From positions 1-64,000 of the forward strand of contig JAHFRV010000001.1 in the NCBI GenBank assembly GCA_023266095.1: a DNA stretch of 64,000 nucleotides, given 5' to 3'. Source of the DNA: Gammaproteobacteria bacterium (GTDB lineage: Bacteria; Pseudomonadota; Gammaproteobacteria; DRLM01). The translations under genes and the position numbers were made by a program. Under the pieces are notes generated by a model that was given only the letters and a program-made list of their open reading frames with translations, was not told the origin of the DNA and did no database searches. Of the stretch, positions 39,954 to 46,487 are shown piece by piece (the first letter of the stretch is position 1; every line of letters begins with the position of its first letter).

Positions 39954-40835
39954 ATGTCCAACAGGAAAGATGAATTTGCGCGCACGATCCGGCAACGTAT
40001 CCAACAGCTGGATGATCTGCCCACACTGCCGGAAGCGGCCCGCGCGCTGCTGCGTTTGCGCAACGATCCGCAGGCCGGCGCGCAGGAGCTGGCCACGGTG
40101 GTGGAACAAGACCCGAGCCTCGCCGCGCAAATCGTCCGCTACGCCCGCCTGTCGATCTTCGGTTATGGCGGCAAAGTCACCTCGGTGCAAAAGACCATCA
40201 CCCTCGTGCTCGGTTTTGACATGGCGCTCCATATGGCGCTGGGCCTCTCCACCGGCAATCGCTTGAATATGCCGGAAGACGGCCGCATCGGTCGGAACGC
40301 ATTCTGGCGCCACGCGGTATACAGCGCGACCTTGATGCAGGAATTCAGCACCGCCATACCCGCCGCCCACCGCCCGCCGGCGGGGCTCACTTATCTCGCC
40401 GGACTGCTCCATAACCTCGGCTTCGTGACCTTGAGCCATCTCGCGCCCAAGGAATTCACTTTACTCAACCAGTTTTTCAGCGAAAGCGGCGTCAACTCGA
40501 CCCGGGAATTAGAACTGCAACTCCTGGGCGTGCGCCATGAGCAACTGGGCATGTGGCTGATGCAAGCCTGGGGGCTGCCCGAGGAGGTGATCATCACCGC
40601 GCGGGAACATCACTATCCCGATTATGAAGGTCGTCACGCTACCTATTCAAAACTGGCTTTGCTCGCCGACCGCGCCCTGGCACGCCACCAGCTGGGTGAC
40701 GACAATAATTGCGAATTGCCCAAAGAAATCCTCGCCAGCCTGGGGTTAACCGAAACCTGGACTCTGGCTACGCTGGAACAACTCTTCACGATTTCTTCCG
40801 AACTGGACTCCCTGGTGGAACAGCTGGCGGCCTGA
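39954..40835 (+). CDS. HDOD-domain signalling protein
   Basis: A 293-residue protein consisting of one HDOD domain (metal-dependent phosphohydrolase relative without the catalytic HD pair). Typical features are LDDLPTLPEAARALLRLRND, VVEQDPSLAAQIVRYARL and the loop HLLGAH-like TYLAGLLHNLGF. HDOD proteins are usually non-enzymatic scaffolds in motility, c-di-GMP or stress signalling. AAGGAG directly upstream of the ATG at 39954 decides the start over the in-frame Met codons at 39912 and 39927. Confidence 0.9.
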   Translation: MSNRKDEFARTIRQRIQQLDDLPTLPEAARALLRLRNDPQAGAQELATVVEQDPSLAAQIVRYARLSIFGYGGKVTSVQKTITLVLGFDMALHMALGLSTGNRLNMPEDGRIGRNAFWRHAVYSATLMQEFSTAIPAAHRPPAGLTYLAGLLHNLGFVTLSHLAPKEFTLLNQFFSESGVNSTRELELQLLGVRHEQLGMWLMQAWGLPEEVIITAREHHYPDYEGRHATYSKLALLADRALARHQLGDDNNCELPKEILASLGLTETWTLATLEQLFTISSELDSLVEQLAA

Positions 40836-40990
40836 GAACCTGTTCATGATCTCGATCAAGGGATGCAGCGCAAGGCAGTTTAAGCCATCAAACATAGTTA
40901 TGGGAAAACCAGCAGAAACTCCGGCGTTCAACGATAGGGAAATGATTCCAGTGCAAACCACCCCCGCTCTCTCCGCGAATTCGCCAAACA

Positions 40991-41152
40991 CTCGGGCCGA
41001 TCAGCCCCATTAAATTAGTCTCACTATTATTCCTCTGGGTGCTGCACAGTACCGCCCAGGCCGCGAATTGCCTCTATGTCTCCTCTTATCACCACGGGCA
41101 TGAGTGGAACGATGGAATTGAACGCCGTGCGCACAACCCGGACTCCATTTTA
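40991..41152 (+). pseudogene. N-terminal remnant of an ABC-type substrate-binding-like protein
   Basis: The frame reads KLVSLLFLWVLHSTAQAAN, a signal peptide, then CLYVSSYHHGHEWNDGIE. This mature start (CLYVSSYH.GYEWNDGIERG) is that of exported proteins of the ABC_sub_bind-like group found in gammaproteobacteria. No ATG is left at the front, similarity stops after GIER, and the frame runs into the MITE at 41153 and stops there. The normal protein would be about 300 residues or more. It is a dead fragment. Confidence 0.7.
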
Positions 41153-41306
41153 GGAATATTTGAATAATTCCATCCTGGAATTTTCAGAGCAAACAAGGCG
41201 AAAAATGTGATTTTCTCTTTTGCGTCATTTCCAATAGCCTGCCGCCATTAAAAAATGGGTGGCACATCCTTGTGCCGCAGGCAGCTCTGAATAAATCAGA
41301 GGTTCC
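41153..41306 (-). mobile_element. MITE-like non-autonomous element, copy 2 (154 bp, inverted)
   Basis: This is an inverted copy of the 27366-27517 element, about 80% identical by eye, including the blocks CATCCTGGAATT, AAAAATGTGATTTTC and GGCACATCC. Flanks are direct repeats TTTA (41149-41152 and 41307-41310), the same 4-bp target as copy 1 read on the other strand. It has no coding capacity and truncates the gene remnant to its left. Confidence 0.88.
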
Positions 41307-41323
41307 TTTATTCGGATAACCGC

Positions 41324-42121
41324 TCAAGGTGCCGGCGGCGGCACCAAGTCCGGTTCGAAATCATAGGTGCCTTGCGGGCCGGGCAGACAAGCCATGCCGC
41401 CGTCGCCGGTACAAAAGCACGAACTTTCATTTGAAGTGACCGTAACGACATCGGCGGCGCCCTCGAATTTTCTCCAGGCATGGCCGTATCCCGCCACCAA
41501 AGCTATGCCTTTGCTCGACGCGGCATCCTGGACGATTTTGGCCTGCGGATGTTCAAACAGGTATTGGGCCAGCGGCCGGCCCGGTGCTTCGTACACGCCG
41601 CCGTTGGTCGAATACCACAAACCGACCGTCGCGTTCCATTGTTGCCAGGTGTCGCATAGGACCTGGCCGTTATAGGCCGGCTGGTAGATCAGCACATCGT
41701 CCGCGACACCGTCGCCGTCGCTGTCGACATCCAGGGTGATCGCGACGGCCTTGGCATCGGCCTTGCGGCTGCCGCCGCAGTGTTTCTGGGACGACACGTA
41801 AGTGGAATAGGTGAGCCCGCCCAGACTGCGCAACGGCATGGCCCAACCCGTGACCAGCACCGCGCGGGCGCCGCCGTCGACATTGTTTTTCACCGGAAGA
41901 CCCTTGCCGATCGCAAATTGCAGACTGCCCGCCCCAAAGGGCGGCGTGGCCGGACCGGTGACAAATTCCAGTGAGGCATTGCCGGTAGTCGCGGTTTGCC
42001 AACCCACGCTGTCCGCCGTGCTGGGCGTGACGATGGCGAAGAACGCCGCGGCGTGCGCGATACCGGGTAACAGCAGCGTGCCCGTCACGGCGACCATGCG
42101 CGTCAATGCTTGGTGTTTCAT
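41324..42121 (-). CDS. Secreted protein of unknown function
   Basis: A 265-residue exported protein. The signal peptide MKHQALTRMVAVTGTLLLPG ends at AHA (about residue 25). The mature part is rich in Gly, Ala, Ser and Thr and has a beta-sandwich-like pattern. DVDSDGDGVADDVLI (about residues 150-165) resembles a calcium-binding loop of thrombospondin type-3 repeats. Four cysteines occur near the C-terminus (SSCFCTGDGGMAC). The protein ends DLVPPPAP without a PEP-CTERM or LPXTG-like signal. AGGAGGG precedes the ATG. I do not recognise the family. Confidence 0.75.
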   Translation of the reverse strand: MKHQALTRMVAVTGTLLLPGIAHAAAFFAIVTPSTADSVGWQTATTGNASLEFVTGPATPPFGAGSLQFAIGKGLPVKNNVDGGARAVLVTGWAMPLRSLGGLTYSTYVSSQKHCGGSRKADAKAVAITLDVDSDGDGVADDVLIYQPAYNGQVLCDTWQQWNATVGLWYSTNGGVYEAPGRPLAQYLFEHPQAKIVQDAASSKGIALVAGYGHAWRKFEGAADVVTVTSNESSCFCTGDGGMACLPGPQGTYDFEPDLVPPPAP

Positions 42122-42162
42122 GTTTCCCTCCTGAGTTATCCAGAGCAGCTTGTCCGCTGAGT

Positions 42163-42210
42163 TGCGTCATTCATCAAAAGCGCGGCCTGACTGGCCCGAT
42201 GAATGACGCA
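42163..42210. repeat. 48-bp inverted repeat
   Basis: TGCGTCATTCATC (42163-42175) is perfectly complementary to GATGAATGACGCA (42198-42210), a 13-bp stem. The 22-base loop itself carries GGCC (42184-42187) and GGCC (42193-42196). It lies 40 bases upstream of the secreted-protein gene (minus strand). No T-run follows in either direction, so it is more likely a regulatory site, a protein-binding dyad or a mobile-element end than a terminator. Confidence 0.6.
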
Positions 42211-42415
42211 CTATTGAGTCGGTATCAATGTTCTTGAAAGGATGAAGCGGGTTGTGCCTCTTTTCGATCGCGTTTCGTTTCAAGTTCGTAGATGCCAACT
42301 CAATAGGTATAGTCGGCGTCCGGCGATAACGCAATGCAGAGTTTGTGCAAAAGCTGAGACGCTGCGCGGAGACGACGGATTATTTCTGATCACCGCATTG
42401 AGGTCGATGGGTAAC

Positions 42416-42457
42416 ATGCGATGAGCATGGCGAATCGCATCGATCAAAAACGATGCG
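42416..42457 (+). repeat. 42-bp imperfect direct repeat, copy 1
   Basis: This segment and 43763-43804 have the same length and match at 33 of 42 positions, with the core CATGGCGAATCGNATCG shared exactly. The right half can form a hairpin CGCATCG/CGATGCG. The two copies flank the first effector/immunity pair. Confidence 0.5.
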
Positions 42458-42526
42458 GCTCGTGCCAGTGGACTTAAGAAGGCAAGGTATTTATTCTTCC
42501 TAAGCATTAACTCCAGATCAACTCGC

Positions 42527-42547
42527 TCACGCCCACCCTGGGCGTGA
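42527..42547. repeat. Perfect 9-bp-stem hairpin
   Basis: TCACGCCCA (42527-42535) and TGGGCGTGA (42539-42547) are exact complements around the loop CCC. No T-run follows. It may be an operator or mRNA hairpin in the region leading into the effector gene. Confidence 0.5.
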
Positions 42548-42672
42548 CTAGTTATCTGAGTGCGAAGGCTCTTCTTTCATAGTGTTCGTAATGGCATTGC
42601 TGTTAGGGTCTCACCACGCAGGTGTTCACGGTCTTCGCCGTCTATACTCTGGCTCAGGGAAAGGGCAGTCAC

Positions 42673-43330
42673 ATGGATGTCGTCATACCCATCGTTTTCC
42701 CCGACTACCTCATCGCCGTGGGGACGCCCGCGATCACCGTGGAGATACCGGATCTTCTTCCTTGGATCGACGTCTTGCCTAAGAAACTCAAGGTTCGAAA
42801 GACGCAAAACAAACTCCCGATGCTCGGCCACGCCGGAGTTCTCTTTTTCGATGGCGGGACTGGCTTGTCGAAGTATTACGAATACGGGCGTTACGATCCC
42901 CAAAATAAAGGGCTGGTTCGCCGCACTTCAATCCCCGACGTGAAGATTGCGCCGAACGGCCGACCCACCGCCGACTCTCTCAAGGCGGTACTGCACAAAA
43001 TCTCGATGGCCGCCGGCCAGAAAGGTCGTATCTCAGGTGTCTACATCGAGGTCAAGGGAACGTTTCCGGCGATGTTGAGCTACGCTGATACACGCAAGAA
43101 ACAGAATGGCAACCCCAGCCGTGTTCCTTATGACCTCACGCGCTATAGCTGCATCCATTTCGCGAAGGGCGTGGTTGAAGCGGCCGGGGTACAAACACCG
43201 TGGATGGTCGACCCGCGACCTCAATCGTACTGGCCAGTTTCGCGATGAATTCTCCGATCTCGACTACGACCCGAAATCGCGATGTCTGACAGTGGAGCGG
43301 ATTCCTGAACTGGGAGGTACGGGGAAATGA
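42673..43330 (+). CDS. Putative cell-wall or lipid hydrolase effector, permuted papain-like fold; frameshifted
   Basis: The protein starts MDVVIPIVFPDYLIAVGTP and has no signal peptide. It carries LGHAGVLFFDGG followed by YYEYGRYD, and later RYSCIHFAKGVVEAAG. A His block followed by a Cys in a [SN]C.HF motif is the order of permuted NlpC/P60, LRAT and YiiX-like papain-fold enzymes, which suggests His in GHAG and Cys in SCIHF as catalytic. Frame 1 ends early at 43248; skipping one base at 43231 restores the tail GQFRDEFSDLDYDPKSRCL down to a TGA at 43328-43330. That TGA overlaps the next ATG, so the longer form is probably ancestral. A role as a type VI or similar antibacterial effector is inferred. 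Confidence 0.6.
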
Positions 43331-43698
43331 GATCTCGATGCCTCGGGCGGCTGCTCGCATTGGCGGTCGTCATTTTCCTCACGGCCTGTCCGGCGTCCGA
43401 TACAGTACCCAAGCGGCCCGCGGGAGTGCCGGCACAGGCCCTGTGGGTGGGTGGTGCTGATGGCGGTGTCTGGGTTCTTGTCGTCCTGCCGACAAAGCCT
43501 AGGGGAAATCTCTATCAGGCGCAGGTCTGGGCCGAGCACACAGGCGATTCACTCTTCGAGGGGTTTATGCAACTTGATCCCCCCGGCGGCATCCCGCCGC
43601 AGGTTGGCAATCCTGCCTCCTATACTGGTTGGGACGGAGACACTTTGTACTTGTCCGACGGACGCGAATTGAAAACAAAGCGGAGTCCAACAGACTGA
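43327..43698 (+). CDS. Lipoprotein, putative cognate immunity protein
   Basis: A 123-residue protein with signal peptide and lipobox FLTAC (Cys21). The mature domain of about 100 residues has an alternating strand pattern (LWVGGADGGVWVLVVLP, YQAQVWAEHTGDSLFEGFMQL) and a glycine/proline-rich end. Its ATG overlaps the restored stop codon of the hydrolase as ATGA. Small periplasmic lipoproteins coupled to an enzyme that acts on the cell wall or envelope are a common form of immunity protein. I do not recognise the family, so the immunity role is inference from context. Confidence 0.65.
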   Translation: MRSRCLGRLLALAVVIFLTACPASDTVPKRPAGVPAQALWVGGADGGVWVLVVLPTKPRGNLYQAQVWAEHTGDSLFEGFMQLDPPGGIPPQVGNPASYTGWDGDTLYLSDGRELKTKRSPTD

Positions 43699-43762
43699 CG
43701 CCGATTTCTCATTCGACGAGATATGGATAGCCGTGGCAACAAAAGAGGGGCCGTGCGGCAGG

Positions 43763-43804
43763 ATGCGAGGAACATGGCGAATCGGATCGGCCGCGAAGGA
43801 TGCG
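43763..43804 (+). repeat. 42-bp imperfect direct repeat, copy 2, with hairpin
   Basis: Matches 42416-42457 at 33 of 42 positions. Here GAATCGGATC (43779-43788) can pair with GATGCGATTC (43799-43808), 9 of 10 pairs. It lies in the 134-base gap between the two convergent modules and could act as a terminator-like barrier between them, although there is no T-run. Confidence 0.5.
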
Positions 43805-43832
43805 ATTCCTTCGTCACATCAACCTACGTGGG

Positions 43833-44171
43833 CTATTTGCACTCAAGTGGCCAGGTATCAGTCGCAATGCGACCGGACGCACTCAGGGCAAATGCGGTAA
43901 CTATTCCGCTGGGTTTATCAAATGAGGCGATGATCAGAGTAGCTCCGTTGTCTAGTGGCTGAACGTAAAACCGGCCGATAGATGGGCTGTTGAGCAAGTT
44001 TTCGCATGGTATGTCGATGCTGCCAATCTTCCGATGAAGCTCCCATGGGTACTCGGCCTCACTCTTTAGACTCGCTTGGAGAGAACCGCTCCATCGTCCT
44101 ACGACGAATGAAAGCGACACCGCCGCTATAGCAATGATGATCCAAGCGAGCCTCTTTGGCGGTGTCATCAT
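43833..44171 (-). CDS. Membrane-anchored periplasmic protein, putative immunity partner of the L,D-transpeptidase
   Basis: A 112-residue protein with one N-terminal membrane segment (about residues 8-28, RLAWIIIAIAAVSLSFVVG) and a periplasmic domain of about 80 residues with two cysteines (IPCENLL and the penultimate Cys of LECK), which may form a disulfide. Its ATG overlaps the transpeptidase stop as ATGA (44168-44171). Position and periplasmic location suggest it protects the cell from the adjacent enzyme. The family is not recognised. Confidence 0.65.
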   Translation of the reverse strand: MMTPPKRLAWIIIAIAAVSLSFVVGRWSGSLQASLKSEAEYPWELHRKIGSIDIPCENLLNSPSIGRFYVQPLDNGATLIIASFDKPSGIVTAFALSASGRIATDTWPLECK

Positions 44172-44677
44172 TTGATGGTCACCGCAATCGTGACGCCGGC
44201 ATATTTGGCCTGCGTCGTCAACTCAAACATCTTCGTTACGTTTTGATTGGATAACCGCACGCACCCGTGTGAGCAGTATAGGTATTTCGCTTCATTGTCG
44301 CCGACGAAGAGCCTCAGGAGTTCTTCGGGCAATGGTGGTTTTTCAAATCCACCAACTAGTGGCCCACGAGTACCGTGTATTCCGTAGGTCGTGTACTTTC
44401 CGGTCTTGCTATTGTTCAGGGGAAGAAAGTATGGTCCGTATGGATTGCCCCAAAGATCTTTAGACCATGGCGTAGGTCCATGTGTCGGGTTGGTTTTGTC
44501 CTTGATCCACTTGCCAGCTTGGTACGAACCCGCTGGTGTACCTTTATCCTCACAGCCAGAAACCACGCTGGCCGTCAAAAGAACGGTCTTTGTGGCGCCG
44601 ACGGTTTCGCTGAGCGTGAGGGTCTTATTTGATCGTGACACAACGATTTCAAGTGAGGGAGTGGATGGTTTTGCCAT
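44168..44677 (-). CDS. YkuD-type L,D-transpeptidase without signal peptide, putative effector
   Basis: A 169-residue protein with a YkuD catalytic domain: TYGIHGTRGP and the active-site motif YCSHGCVRLSN (catalytic Cys in HGC). YkuD enzymes form 3-3 or lipoprotein crosslinks or swap D-amino acids on peptidoglycan. Unlike housekeeping family members it has no signal peptide, LysM or membrane anchor, so it must leave the cell by another route. Tlde1-type type VI effectors have the same logic: an L,D-transpeptidase-like enzyme with an adjacent periplasmic immunity protein. AGGAGA precedes the ATG. The base composition is more AT-rich than the core genes. Confidence 0.82.
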   Translation of the reverse strand: MAKPSTPSLEIVVSRSNKTLTLSETVGATKTVLLTASVVSGCEDKGTPAGSYQAGKWIKDKTNPTHGPTPWSKDLWGNPYGPYFLPLNNSKTGKYTTYGIHGTRGPLVGGFEKPPLPEELLRLFVGDNEAKYLYCSHGCVRLSNQNVTKMFELTTQAKYAGVTIAVTIK

Positions 44678-44822
44678 CGTAGTCTCCTAGAAAAAGTATA
44701 TGTAGCCTGGGTGGAGCGCCGTTCGCGAAAACCGGGAACCCGCATCCTTGAAGCTACACAAGAACACGGATCGGCGTGAACTCAACACTACGCAAGCCAA
44801 CACGCAGCGTCGCGGCACGCAA

Positions 44823-46487
44823 TCAATCCCGCCCGCTCGGCCACGCCAAGAGTAACAACAAGCCGCCCACCCCGCCCAACACCCAGGTGAACAGCGGGGC
44901 ATCGCCCACCATCAACGGTGCGTAGCCGTCCAGACCCAGCACCACCGCCGCCGCAATCACCAGCGCGGCGCCGACCACGGCCACGTACAAACGCTGCTGG
45001 CCTTGGCGCAAACTGCGGTGCAGCTCGCGCAGCTCGGGATTGTCGCTGGTCACTTTGAGTTGACCGGTTTCGGCGCGCTTCAGCACATCGTGCAACAGGG
45101 CGGGAATTTCCGGCAGGCGTTCCGCCCAGCGCGGGATGTTCTCTTTTAAGCCGCGCAGCAAGGCGTGCACACCGACTTGCTCGCTCATCCAGCGTTCGAG
45201 AAACGGCTTGGCGGTCTGCCACAAATCGAGATCGGGATAGAGGTCGCGGCCCAGCCCTTCGATGTTAAGCAGGGTCTTTTGCAGCAGCACCAATTGCGGT
45301 TGCACTTGCATGTTGAAACGCCGCGCGGTTTGAAACAGCCGCAGCAGTAACTGGCCGAAGGAGATTTCTTTGAGCGGCCGCTCGAAGATCGGTTCGCAGA
45401 CGGTGCGGATCGCCGATTCGAATTCATCGACCCGCGTTCCCTCCGGCACCCAGCCCGACAAGACATGCAGCTCGGCTACCCGTCGGTAGTCGCGGCGGAA
45501 AAAGGCCACGAAGTTTTCGGCGAGATAGTGCTGGTCGACCGGATTCAGCGTGCCCATGATGCCGAAATCCACGGCGAGGTATTGCCCCTGCGGCGAGACG
45601 AAGATGTTGCCGGGGTGCATGTCGGCGTGAAAAAAACTGTGGCGAAACACTTGGGTGAAAAAGATTTCAACGCCGCGTTCGGAGAGTTGTTTGAGATCGA
45701 TGCCCTGTTGCCGCAGCGCCGCGATGTCACCGATAGGCGTGCCGTAGATGCGTTCCATCACCATCACCTGACGGCGGCTATAGGGCCAATACACCTCGGG
45801 CACATAGAGCAGCCCGGACTCTTGAAAATTACGGCGCAACTGCGAGGCGTTGGCCGCCTCGCGCAGCAAATCGAGCTCATCGAGAATGGTCTTTTCATAT
45901 TCGCGCACCACCTCGCGCGGCCGCAGGCGCCGGCCCTCGCTCCAGTAATCTTCGGCGAGACCGGCCACCACATACAGCAGACCGATGTCGCGAACGATCA
46001 CTTCCTGGATATGGGGCCTCACCACTTTCACCACCACCTCGCGACCGTCGTGCAGGCGCGCCAGATGCACTTGGGCGATCGAGGCGGAAGCGTGCGGTGT
46101 TTCTTCGAAGTGGGCGAACAACTCGGTGACCGGCTGACCCAAGGCGCTTTCGATGATGGCACGCGACTCGGCGCCGGGAAACGGTGGCACCCGATCCTGC
46201 AACTTAGTCAGTTCGACGGCGATGTCGTCCGGCAACAGATCGCGGCGGGTGGAGAGCATCTGCCCGAATTTGACGAAGATCGGACCCAACTCTTCCAACG
46301 CAAGGCGGATGCGCACGCCGCGCGGCGGCAGTTGGCGGGGCACCCAATACCAGGGGAGAAAATACCGGATGAAACGCACCGGCCGGAACAGATGGGTGGC
46401 GAGCACAATGTCGTCCAGACCGTGACGCAACAACACGATATTGATGTGCAGCAGGCGCAATAACTGGCGCGGTTGAAACATCAGCAT
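44823..46487 (-). CDS. ubiB: Ubiquinone biosynthesis kinase-like protein UbiB
   Basis: Atypical ADCK/COQ8-type kinase-fold protein required for ubiquinone synthesis. [18 protein letters not shown] (KxGQ motif) is near residue 75, and an Ala-rich loop [10 protein letters not shown] and [11 protein letters not shown] follow. Two C-terminal membrane helices lie at about 505-550. It is 554 residues (E. coli 546) from the ATG at 46487, which aligns best with family starts; an in-frame TTG at 46526 overlapping the ubiJ stop is a possible longer start. It is last of the operon ubiE-RDD-ubiJ-ubiB. Confidence 0.96.

What the first reader, a model, noticed from the sequence alone, without database searches (positions are those of the whole stretch)
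42673..44677. Two convergent effector/immunity-like modules aimed at the cell envelope
Two enzymes without signal peptides, a permuted papain-like hydrolase (42673-43330) and a YkuD L,D-transpeptidase (44168-44677), each overlap by ATGA a small lipoprotein (43327-43698) or membrane-anchored periplasmic protein (43833-44171). The modules are tail to tail with 134 bases between them. The same design (cytoplasmically made wall enzyme plus periplasmic immunity partner) is known for type VI effectors such as Tlde1/Tldi1. No VgrG, PAAR, Hcp or baseplate genes are here, so this would be an orphan toxin island with unassigned delivery. The hydrolase family and both partner families are not ones I can name.
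Basis: partly seen in the sequence, partly recalled or inferred. Interest (0 to 1): 0.8.

Follow-up and report, generated by a model that had tools for sequence, protein, structure and literature searches.

The report
Two envelope toxin–immunity-like gene pairs
Two small, probably imported gene pairs, each an envelope-attacking enzyme with a likely protective partner of the kind bacteria inject into rivals, sit tail to tail in a genome assembly where the core of such an injection machine was not found, and one of the two enzymes appears cut short.

Summary
(1) The 42673-43330 "hydrolase" is not one reading frame. The frame ends at 43248 and the tail that relatives keep lies in another frame, so this effector is C-terminally broken in the assembly. 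(2) It can be named: Pfam TseH (PF25218, 1.1e-26), the Vibrio cholerae type VI effector family. A profile of its lipoprotein partner (no Pfam family) finds, among 369 sampled class genomes, only the six with a free-standing TseH. All five other such genomes have the T6SS sheath gene (71 of 369 overall). (3) The YkuD enzyme does not match the Tlde1 profile. An Aquabacterium contig holds a 63%-identical enzyme with the same ATGA overlap to a homologue of the same anchored partner, among flagellar genes: a conserved, unnamed L,D-transpeptidase–partner pair. The host assembly (96.4% complete) shows no VipB, Hcp, PAAR or TssM, but has a VgrG–Rhs operon. I read the island as two horizontally acquired T6SS-type effector–immunity cassettes, now most likely kept for immunity or as relics. 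Toxicity, binding and delivery were not tested.

The parts
42673..43248 (+). TseH-like permuted papain-like cysteine hydrolase, 191 aa, no signal peptide seen; predicted catalytic His53 and Cys160; C-terminal tail lost by a frame change near codon 183-186
   Evidence: PF25218 E 1.1e-26; PDB 6v98 'Cysteine hydrolase' E 1.4e-27; alignments; frame check; hydropathy
43229..43330 (+). out-of-frame remnant of the conserved TseH C-terminal tail; its stop overlaps the partner's ATG
   Evidence: tblastn second frame 43229-43297; ORF 43106-43330; tail in frame in L006 and L007
43327..43698 (+). TsiH-like predicted periplasmic lipoprotein (lipobox LTAC, Cys21), presumed immunity protein
   Evidence: family alignment, 25-34% identity with a WxGGxDGG motif; profile finds 6 of 369 genomes, the same 6 that have free-standing TseH; lipobox; no Pfam family
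43833..44171 (-). single-anchor, probably periplasmic protein, presumed immunity partner of the L,D-transpeptidase
   Evidence: 34% identical homologue in the same position in L024; predicted N-terminal helix plus four strands, mean pLDDT 78
44168..44677 (-). YkuD L,D-transpeptidase/carboxypeptidase-like enzyme, 169 aa, no signal peptide seen, SHGC motif with Cys139, intact frame
   Evidence: PF03734 E 3.8e-11; 63% identity over all 169 residues to the Aquabacterium homologue
42416..42457 (+). left copy of an imperfect 42-nt direct repeat flanking the TseH module (possible insertion scar)
   Evidence: extended local alignment score 53 against a maximum of 43 in 500 single-base shuffles
43763..43804 (+). 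right copy of the same repeat, 79% identical, between the two modules

Best explanation
Two horizontally acquired T6SS-type cargo effector-immunity cassettes lie tail to tail. Cassette 1 is TseH-like: a cytoplasmically made permuted papain-like cysteine hydrolase that would be injected into a neighbour's periplasm and attack phospholipid acyl groups or peptidoglycan there, blocked in the producer by a periplasmic lipoprotein. Cassette 2 is a YkuD L,D-transpeptidase that would trim or exchange the D-Ala of peptidoglycan stem peptides in the target's periplasm, blocked by a membrane-anchored periplasmic partner. In this genome effector 1 has lost its conserved C-terminal tail and T6SS core markers were not found, so the locus most likely works now as inherited immunity plus a possibly idle toxin, not as an armed weapon. 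Shown: families, gene pairing, unusual composition, frame break, absence of four core markers from the assembly. Inferred: toxicity, immunity binding, target, delivery route, and that the foreign composition means horizontal transfer.
For: TseH family match. A profile of the TsiH-like partner finds 6 of 369 class genomes, the same 6 with free-standing TseH (p = 3e-13; the profile was built from those six genomes, so the informative part is its absence from the other 363). T6SS sheath gene in 5 of 5 of the other five against 66 of 363 of the rest. G166 copy inside a T6SS cluster next to a PAAR-like gene. YkuD-partner pair with the same ATGA overlap in Aquabacterium, among flagellar genes. No signal peptide seen on either enzyme, anchor or lipobox on both partners. 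Low GC and GC3. Own genome: no VipB, PAAR, Hcp or TssM. TseH frame broken in window, L010 and L011, in one frame in L006, L007, L008; in L010 the catalytic His position reads Tyr; the adjacent TsiH-like gene is open in all six. TsiH-like genes on two Pseudoalteromonas plasmids without a TseH match on those plasmids (their chromosomes were not searched). Published TseH-TsiH module in V. cholerae Aux3 (PMC7721734, passages).
Against: The genome has a VgrG-Rhs operon and is 96.4% complete, so a T6SS could sit in a gap. Three Rhs-type TseH domains end just after the Cys helix, so losing the tail need not inactivate. Effector decay against immunity retention is not significant (3 of 6 against 1 of 8 broken, p = 0.17), and the frame breaks could be assembly errors. 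The YkuD pair is known from two genomes only; no toxicity or binding data exist. The GC3 of cassette 1 is only mildly low (z -1.3 and -1.9).
Confidence: 0.66

Rival explanations
1. Armed weapon: the cell has an unassembled T6SS, or a second delivery route, and fires both effectors; the truncated TseH is still active or its frame break is an assembly error.
For: VgrG and Rhs genes are in the genome; two same-family genomes, G003 and G004, have VipB and TssM; His53 and Cys160 are kept; YkuD effector intact.
Against: VipB, Hcp, PAAR and TssM not found; same-genus G002 (99% complete) also lacks VipB, Hcp and TssM; no PAAR gene beside the cassettes. Adaptor families were not searched for.
Confidence: 0.2
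2. Pure relic: both cassettes are neutral leftovers of horizontal transfer into a lineage without T6SS, and all four genes are decaying.
For: Broken TseH; T6SS core markers not found; orphan setting among other genes.
Against: Three of the four genes are intact with plausible signals and motifs; the YkuD enzyme keeps all 169 residues at 63% identity to a distant relative without a gap.
Confidence: 0.1
3. Housekeeping envelope enzymes with accessory partners, not weapons (for instance a cytoplasmic L,D-carboxypeptidase for wall recycling, like ElsL).
For: Weak NCBIfam matches of the YkuD protein, to PRK06132.1-3 (E 0.00047, 19.1 bits against cut-off 329) and to ElsL (E 0.003, 17.4 bits against 270); no signal peptide, as expected of a cytoplasmic recycler.
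Against: Found in 1 of 369 class genomes at E <= 1e-5; partner is predicted periplasmic; cassettes are low-GC and patchy; TseH is a known effector family.
Confidence: 0.04

Closest known systems
TseH-TsiH of Vibrio cholerae T6SS Aux3 (VCA0285-VCA0286), Pfam PF25218
   Same: Permuted papain-like effector next to a periplasmic immunity gene, on a mobile segment between direct repeats and set among other genes (PMC7721734 passages; window).
   Different: No PAAR beside it here and no integrase seen; effector frame broken at the C-terminus; T6SS core markers not found in the assembly; homology of P0002 to V. cholerae TsiH not tested.
Tlde1a-Tldi1a of Salmonella SPI-6 T6SS
   Same: L,D-transpeptidase fold used as a toxin, in an effector-immunity pair (PMC9638812, abstract and passages).
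   Different: P0004 matches YkuD PF03734 and no Tlde1 profile (PF10908, name and number recalled) at E <= 1; not seen linked to T6SS genes; partner family unnamed.
[quoted passage not shown]
   Same: Same permuted His-then-Cys core; TseH is one clade of the same tree and cleaved a fluorescent phospholipid at pH 8.9 only, while it showed no activity in that paper's mass-spectrometry assay (PMC12994826 passages).
   Different: The window protein matches the TseH family; its substrate is untested.
Orphan immunity genes / acquired interbacterial defence
   Same: Immunity genes kept without a cognate effector (PMC12247911, PMC10470768; starts of abstracts in the search listing).
   Different: Here one cassette still has an intact effector; protection is not shown.

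Membership tests
TseH effector family (PF25218) | Profile match over the core | tested here: met
   E 1.1e-26, 94.1 bits against cut-off 27
TseH effector family (PF25218) | Permuted papain-like catalytic His then Cys | tested here: met
   Cys160 invariant in 9 of 9 rows of A4; His53 in 7 of 9 rows, the other two being broken copies cut before or at it; both invariant in 3 of 3 rows of A5
TseH effector family (PF25218) | Intact full-length reading frame with C-terminal tail | tested here: not met
   Tail in another frame; this lowers 'working TseH', not family descent
TseH effector family (PF25218) | Adjacent periplasmic immunity gene | tested here: met
   P0002 family beside all 6 free-standing TseH genes
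TseH effector family (PF25218) | PAAR adaptor or T6SS core in the genome | tested here: not met
   PAAR, VipB, Hcp, TssM not found in the 96.4% complete assembly; VgrG present
TsiH of V. cholerae | Sequence homology of P0002 to TsiH | not tested
   TsiH sequence not fetched
Tlde1 (T6SS L,D-transpeptidase effectors) | Match to the Tlde1 Pfam profile | tested here: not met
   Only PF03734 YkuD at E <= 1 for P0004; only PF03734 at E <= 0.01 for the L024 homologue
Tlde1 (T6SS L,D-transpeptidase effectors) | L,D-transpeptidase Cys/His motif | tested here: met
   SHGC (Cys139) and GIHGT (His101) invariant between P0004 and L024
Tlde1 (T6SS L,D-transpeptidase effectors) | Periplasmic immunity partner in an operon | tested here: inconclusive
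   Anchored partner with ATGA overlap in 2 of 2 known loci; that it confers immunity is untested
Tlde1 (T6SS L,D-transpeptidase effectors) | Linkage to a T6SS cluster | tested here: not met
   Window: no VipB, PAAR, Hcp or TssM in the genome, and VgrG on another contig. L024, 16.5 kb: none seen by eye among its ORFs
Tlde1 (T6SS L,D-transpeptidase effectors) | Capping subdomain and dual activity | not tested
   P0004 was not folded; activity needs enzymology
Orphan immunity / acquired interbacterial defence | Intact immunity gene without working cognate effector | tested here: inconclusive
   True for cassette 1 if the frame break is real and inactivating; not for cassette 2

The most novel reading that the evidence does not exclude
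The YkuD-anchored-partner pair founds an unnamed family of L,D-transpeptidase effector-immunity cassettes that move independently of T6SS loci, and in this T6SS-less lineage both cassettes are kept mainly as acquired immunity, with TseH decaying while its immunity gene stays.
Probability: 0.35. Interest if true: 0.6.

Novelty: new variant of a known kind. Interest (0 to 1): 0.45.

Why it matters
It names one half of the finding (TseH with a lipoprotein or anchored immunity-like family that Pfam does not hold) and isolates the other half as a candidate new L,D-transpeptidase effector family with its own partner family. If the cassettes are kept in a genome without a T6SS, they are a natural case for asking whether immunity genes outlive the weapon.

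Tried and rejected
Phage origin: no relative of P0004 in viral contigs or phage records, none of the TseH alignment A5 in viral contigs, no PHROG or PADLOC match at E <= 0.1 for the four proteins. One unverified 'bacteriophage' scaffold carries a TseH domain at the end of a 2125-aa protein with a DUF6443 domain. No P0004 or P0003 relative on plasmids. Wider search for the YkuD family: 1 of 369 class genomes, 1 of the 6 held genomes of the order, all of one family, 1 locus in genome contigs. Solved structures by sequence: nothing for P0004 alone; TsiH-like profile, best a titin chain at E 0.009; YkuD profile, known L,D-transpeptidases only at E 0.33 to 0.98, mixed with unrelated chains; P0003 profile, one antibody chain at E 0.66. 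Fold of P0003: no Foldseek match at E <= 0.001; best VIA row a competence pilin, Z 6.4, rmsd 3.3, 65 aligned, in the range of common arrangements; absence of a family from that list excludes nothing. Fold of P0002 alone: mean pLDDT 51, not used. RNA families: none at 40500-45000. Promoter- and terminator-like sites: 1 and 6 found, shuffles 2.3 and 5.1. The 17-nt core of the direct repeat is not rare at up to three mismatches (2 found, 1.42 expected), though both copies are exact; the 42-nt repeat is the stronger evidence, but the shuffle test was run on regions chosen after seeing it. Broken effector against intact immunity as a pattern: not significant. One hit was dropped before counts: L014/G071, below the TseH cut-off with four stops. 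No empty-site comparison with G002 was made.

Full report
Check of the observation. Three of the four genes are as described; the first is not. The span 42673-43330 holds 658 bases and cannot be one frame. Translation from 42673 ends at 43248 (191 aa). Relatives L006, L007 and others carry a further conserved tail. tblastn with the L006 protein matches the window in one frame to 43230 and in another from 43229 to 43297. The YkuD/partner overlap is real, and so are the 134 bases between the modules.

Cassette 1. P0001 matches Pfam TseH at 1.1e-26 and the solved chain 6v98 at 1.4e-27 (that this is V. cholerae TseH is recalled). Cys160 is invariant in 9 of 9 aligned proteins and His53 is present in 7 of 9. 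TseH occurs in 10 of 369 sampled genomes of the class, 9 of them over the curated cut-off. Of those nine, six are free-standing genes (window, L006, L007, L008, L010, L011) and three are the C-termini of proteins with Rhs-like sequence before the TseH domain (L009, L012, L013; Rhs-like by eye; Pfam's RHS model was matched, below cut-off, only in L013). All six free-standing copies are followed by a small lipoprotein or anchored protein with a WxGGxDGG motif. A profile of this partner finds 6 of 369 genomes, the same six; because the profile was built from them, the informative part is that the other 363 have none. No Pfam family covers it (0 of 7 members). The Rhs-type copies are followed by other small proteins; the one in L012 is Pfam Imm58.

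T6SS link. The sheath gene VipB is in 71 of 369 genomes. It is in 5 of 5 genomes with free-standing TseH other than the window's (p = 2.4e-4; 5 of 6 with the window's, p = 0.0012) and in 0 of 3 with Rhs-type TseH. In G166 the pair lies in a T6SS cluster beside PAAR-like and TssF-like genes (names by eye except VipB). In G205, G132, G057 and G207 no T6SS gene was noticed by eye in the stretch fetched (18.0, 18.5, 3.9 and 18.5 kb); in G205 the pair sits between ubiC-like and ubiA-like genes. So an orphan setting is common for this family.

The host. The assembly has 3,325,946 bases in 110 contigs and is 96.44% complete. VipB, PAAR, Hcp and TssM (IcmF-related) were not found. A 7.3-kb contig carries VgrG, a TPR protein, an 1099-aa Rhs protein and a small downstream gene. 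G003 and G004 in the same family have VipB and TssM; G002 of the same genus, 99% complete, has no VipB, Hcp or TssM. A T6SS in an assembly gap is not excluded.

Cassette 2. P0004 is a YkuD enzyme (3.8e-11) with SHGC and no signal peptide seen. At E <= 1e-5 it has no match in the other 368 class genomes, plasmids or phages. One genome contig, from an Aquabacterium MAG, encodes a 63%-identical enzyme, ungapped over all 169 residues, followed with the same ATGA overlap by a 34%-identical homologue of P0003 (blastp E 3.6e-24), set among flagellar genes (fliD-, fliF-, fliM-like, by eye). Conservation of the pair at this distance is the main evidence that P0003 is its functional partner. P0003 is predicted as one N-terminal helix, two short helices and four strands (mean pLDDT 78, two-row alignment) with no clear structural relative.

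Origin. The window's composition dips here. GC3 is 0.55 and 0.56 for cassette 2 and 0.67 and 0.63 for cassette 1, against a mean of 0.75 (sd 0.06) for 38 greedily chosen ORFs of at least 200 aa elsewhere in the window. A 42-nt direct repeat, 79% identical, flanks cassette 1; its extended alignment scores 53 against at most 43 in 500 single-base shuffles. The V. cholerae TseH module is likewise a mobile element between direct repeats (PMC7721734, passages).

How it would work. Published for V. cholerae: TseH is loaded with the help of a PAAR protein and acts in the target, and periplasmic TsiH neutralises it (PMC7721734 passages). Its substrate is disputed: peptidoglycan in that paper; phospholipid acyl groups according to PMC12994826, where TseH was active in a fluorescence assay at pH 8.9 but not in the mass-spectrometry assay (passages). 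Tlde1a, another L,D-transpeptidase toxin, trims tetrapeptides and exchanges D-amino acids (PMC9638812, abstract). By analogy cassette 2 would do the same; that step is inference.

Decay. Among the six free-standing TseH genes, three are split over two frames (window, L010, L011) and three lie in one frame. In L010 the catalytic His position also reads Tyr. The adjacent TsiH-like gene is open in all six, and L006 has a second open copy. A further TsiH-like gene in G057 has a stop. The contrast 3 of 6 against 1 of 8 is not significant (p = 0.17). Two Pseudoalteromonas plasmids carry the TsiH-like protein with no TseH match on the plasmid at E <= 1e-5 nor a convincing one in the 12.3 kb around it (best E 0.54); their chromosomes were not searched. 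This fits retention of immunity without the weapon, but does not prove it. Against it, the Rhs-type TseH domains lack the tail, so the truncated window protein could still be active.

Literature searched for a published YkuD-type effector outside Tlde1. One search returned only the Tlde1a paper; one search returned six papers, of which I opened the Tlde1a paper and PMC3482391 (no YkuD in the part held; its toxin table does list an NlpC/P60 domain with T6SS, PVC and TcdB/TcaC carriers). One search listed 16 papers, of which I opened two. That is a search of one open-access library, not proof of absence. PMC13377157 was opened for TseH and only mentions it.

Verdict. It is a TseH-type pair with a broken effector plus an unnamed L,D-transpeptidase-type pair. 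Interest is moderate.

Noticed in passing
L004 1-7191 (G000:C58): Own-genome contig with VgrG, a TPR protein, an 1099-aa Rhs protein and a small downstream gene, in an assembly without VipB, Hcp, PAAR-profile or TssM matches; the contig begins at the VgrG gene.
   Followed up: partly
L010 296-976 and L011 2456-3118: A gene of the M74 murein endopeptidase family (PF03411; the two are 60% identical) lies next to the TsiH-like gene in two different genomes, a possible third member of the cassette.
   Followed up: partly
L006 2102-3067: Tandem duplication of the TsiH-like immunity gene after an intact TseH (77% identity in the tblastn).
   Followed up: no
plasmid NZ_CP080775.1 near 64787-65469 (not fetched): A TseH-like stretch under a gene annotated SpvB/TcaC N-terminal domain protein, followed at once by a partial TsiH-like match: the same pair on a different carrier.
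   Followed up: no
L021 and L022: What look like arrays of partial Rhs C-terminal cassettes, including TseH tips, in genomes without a VipB match.
   Followed up: no
window 42211-42306: Inverted repeat with 32-nt arms, 78% complementary, in the gap before the TseH module.
   Followed up: no
window 41324-42121: A 265-aa gene with a signal-peptide-like start (by eye) and no family over cut-off, between the HDOD-like gene and the island; ordinary GC3.
   Followed up: no
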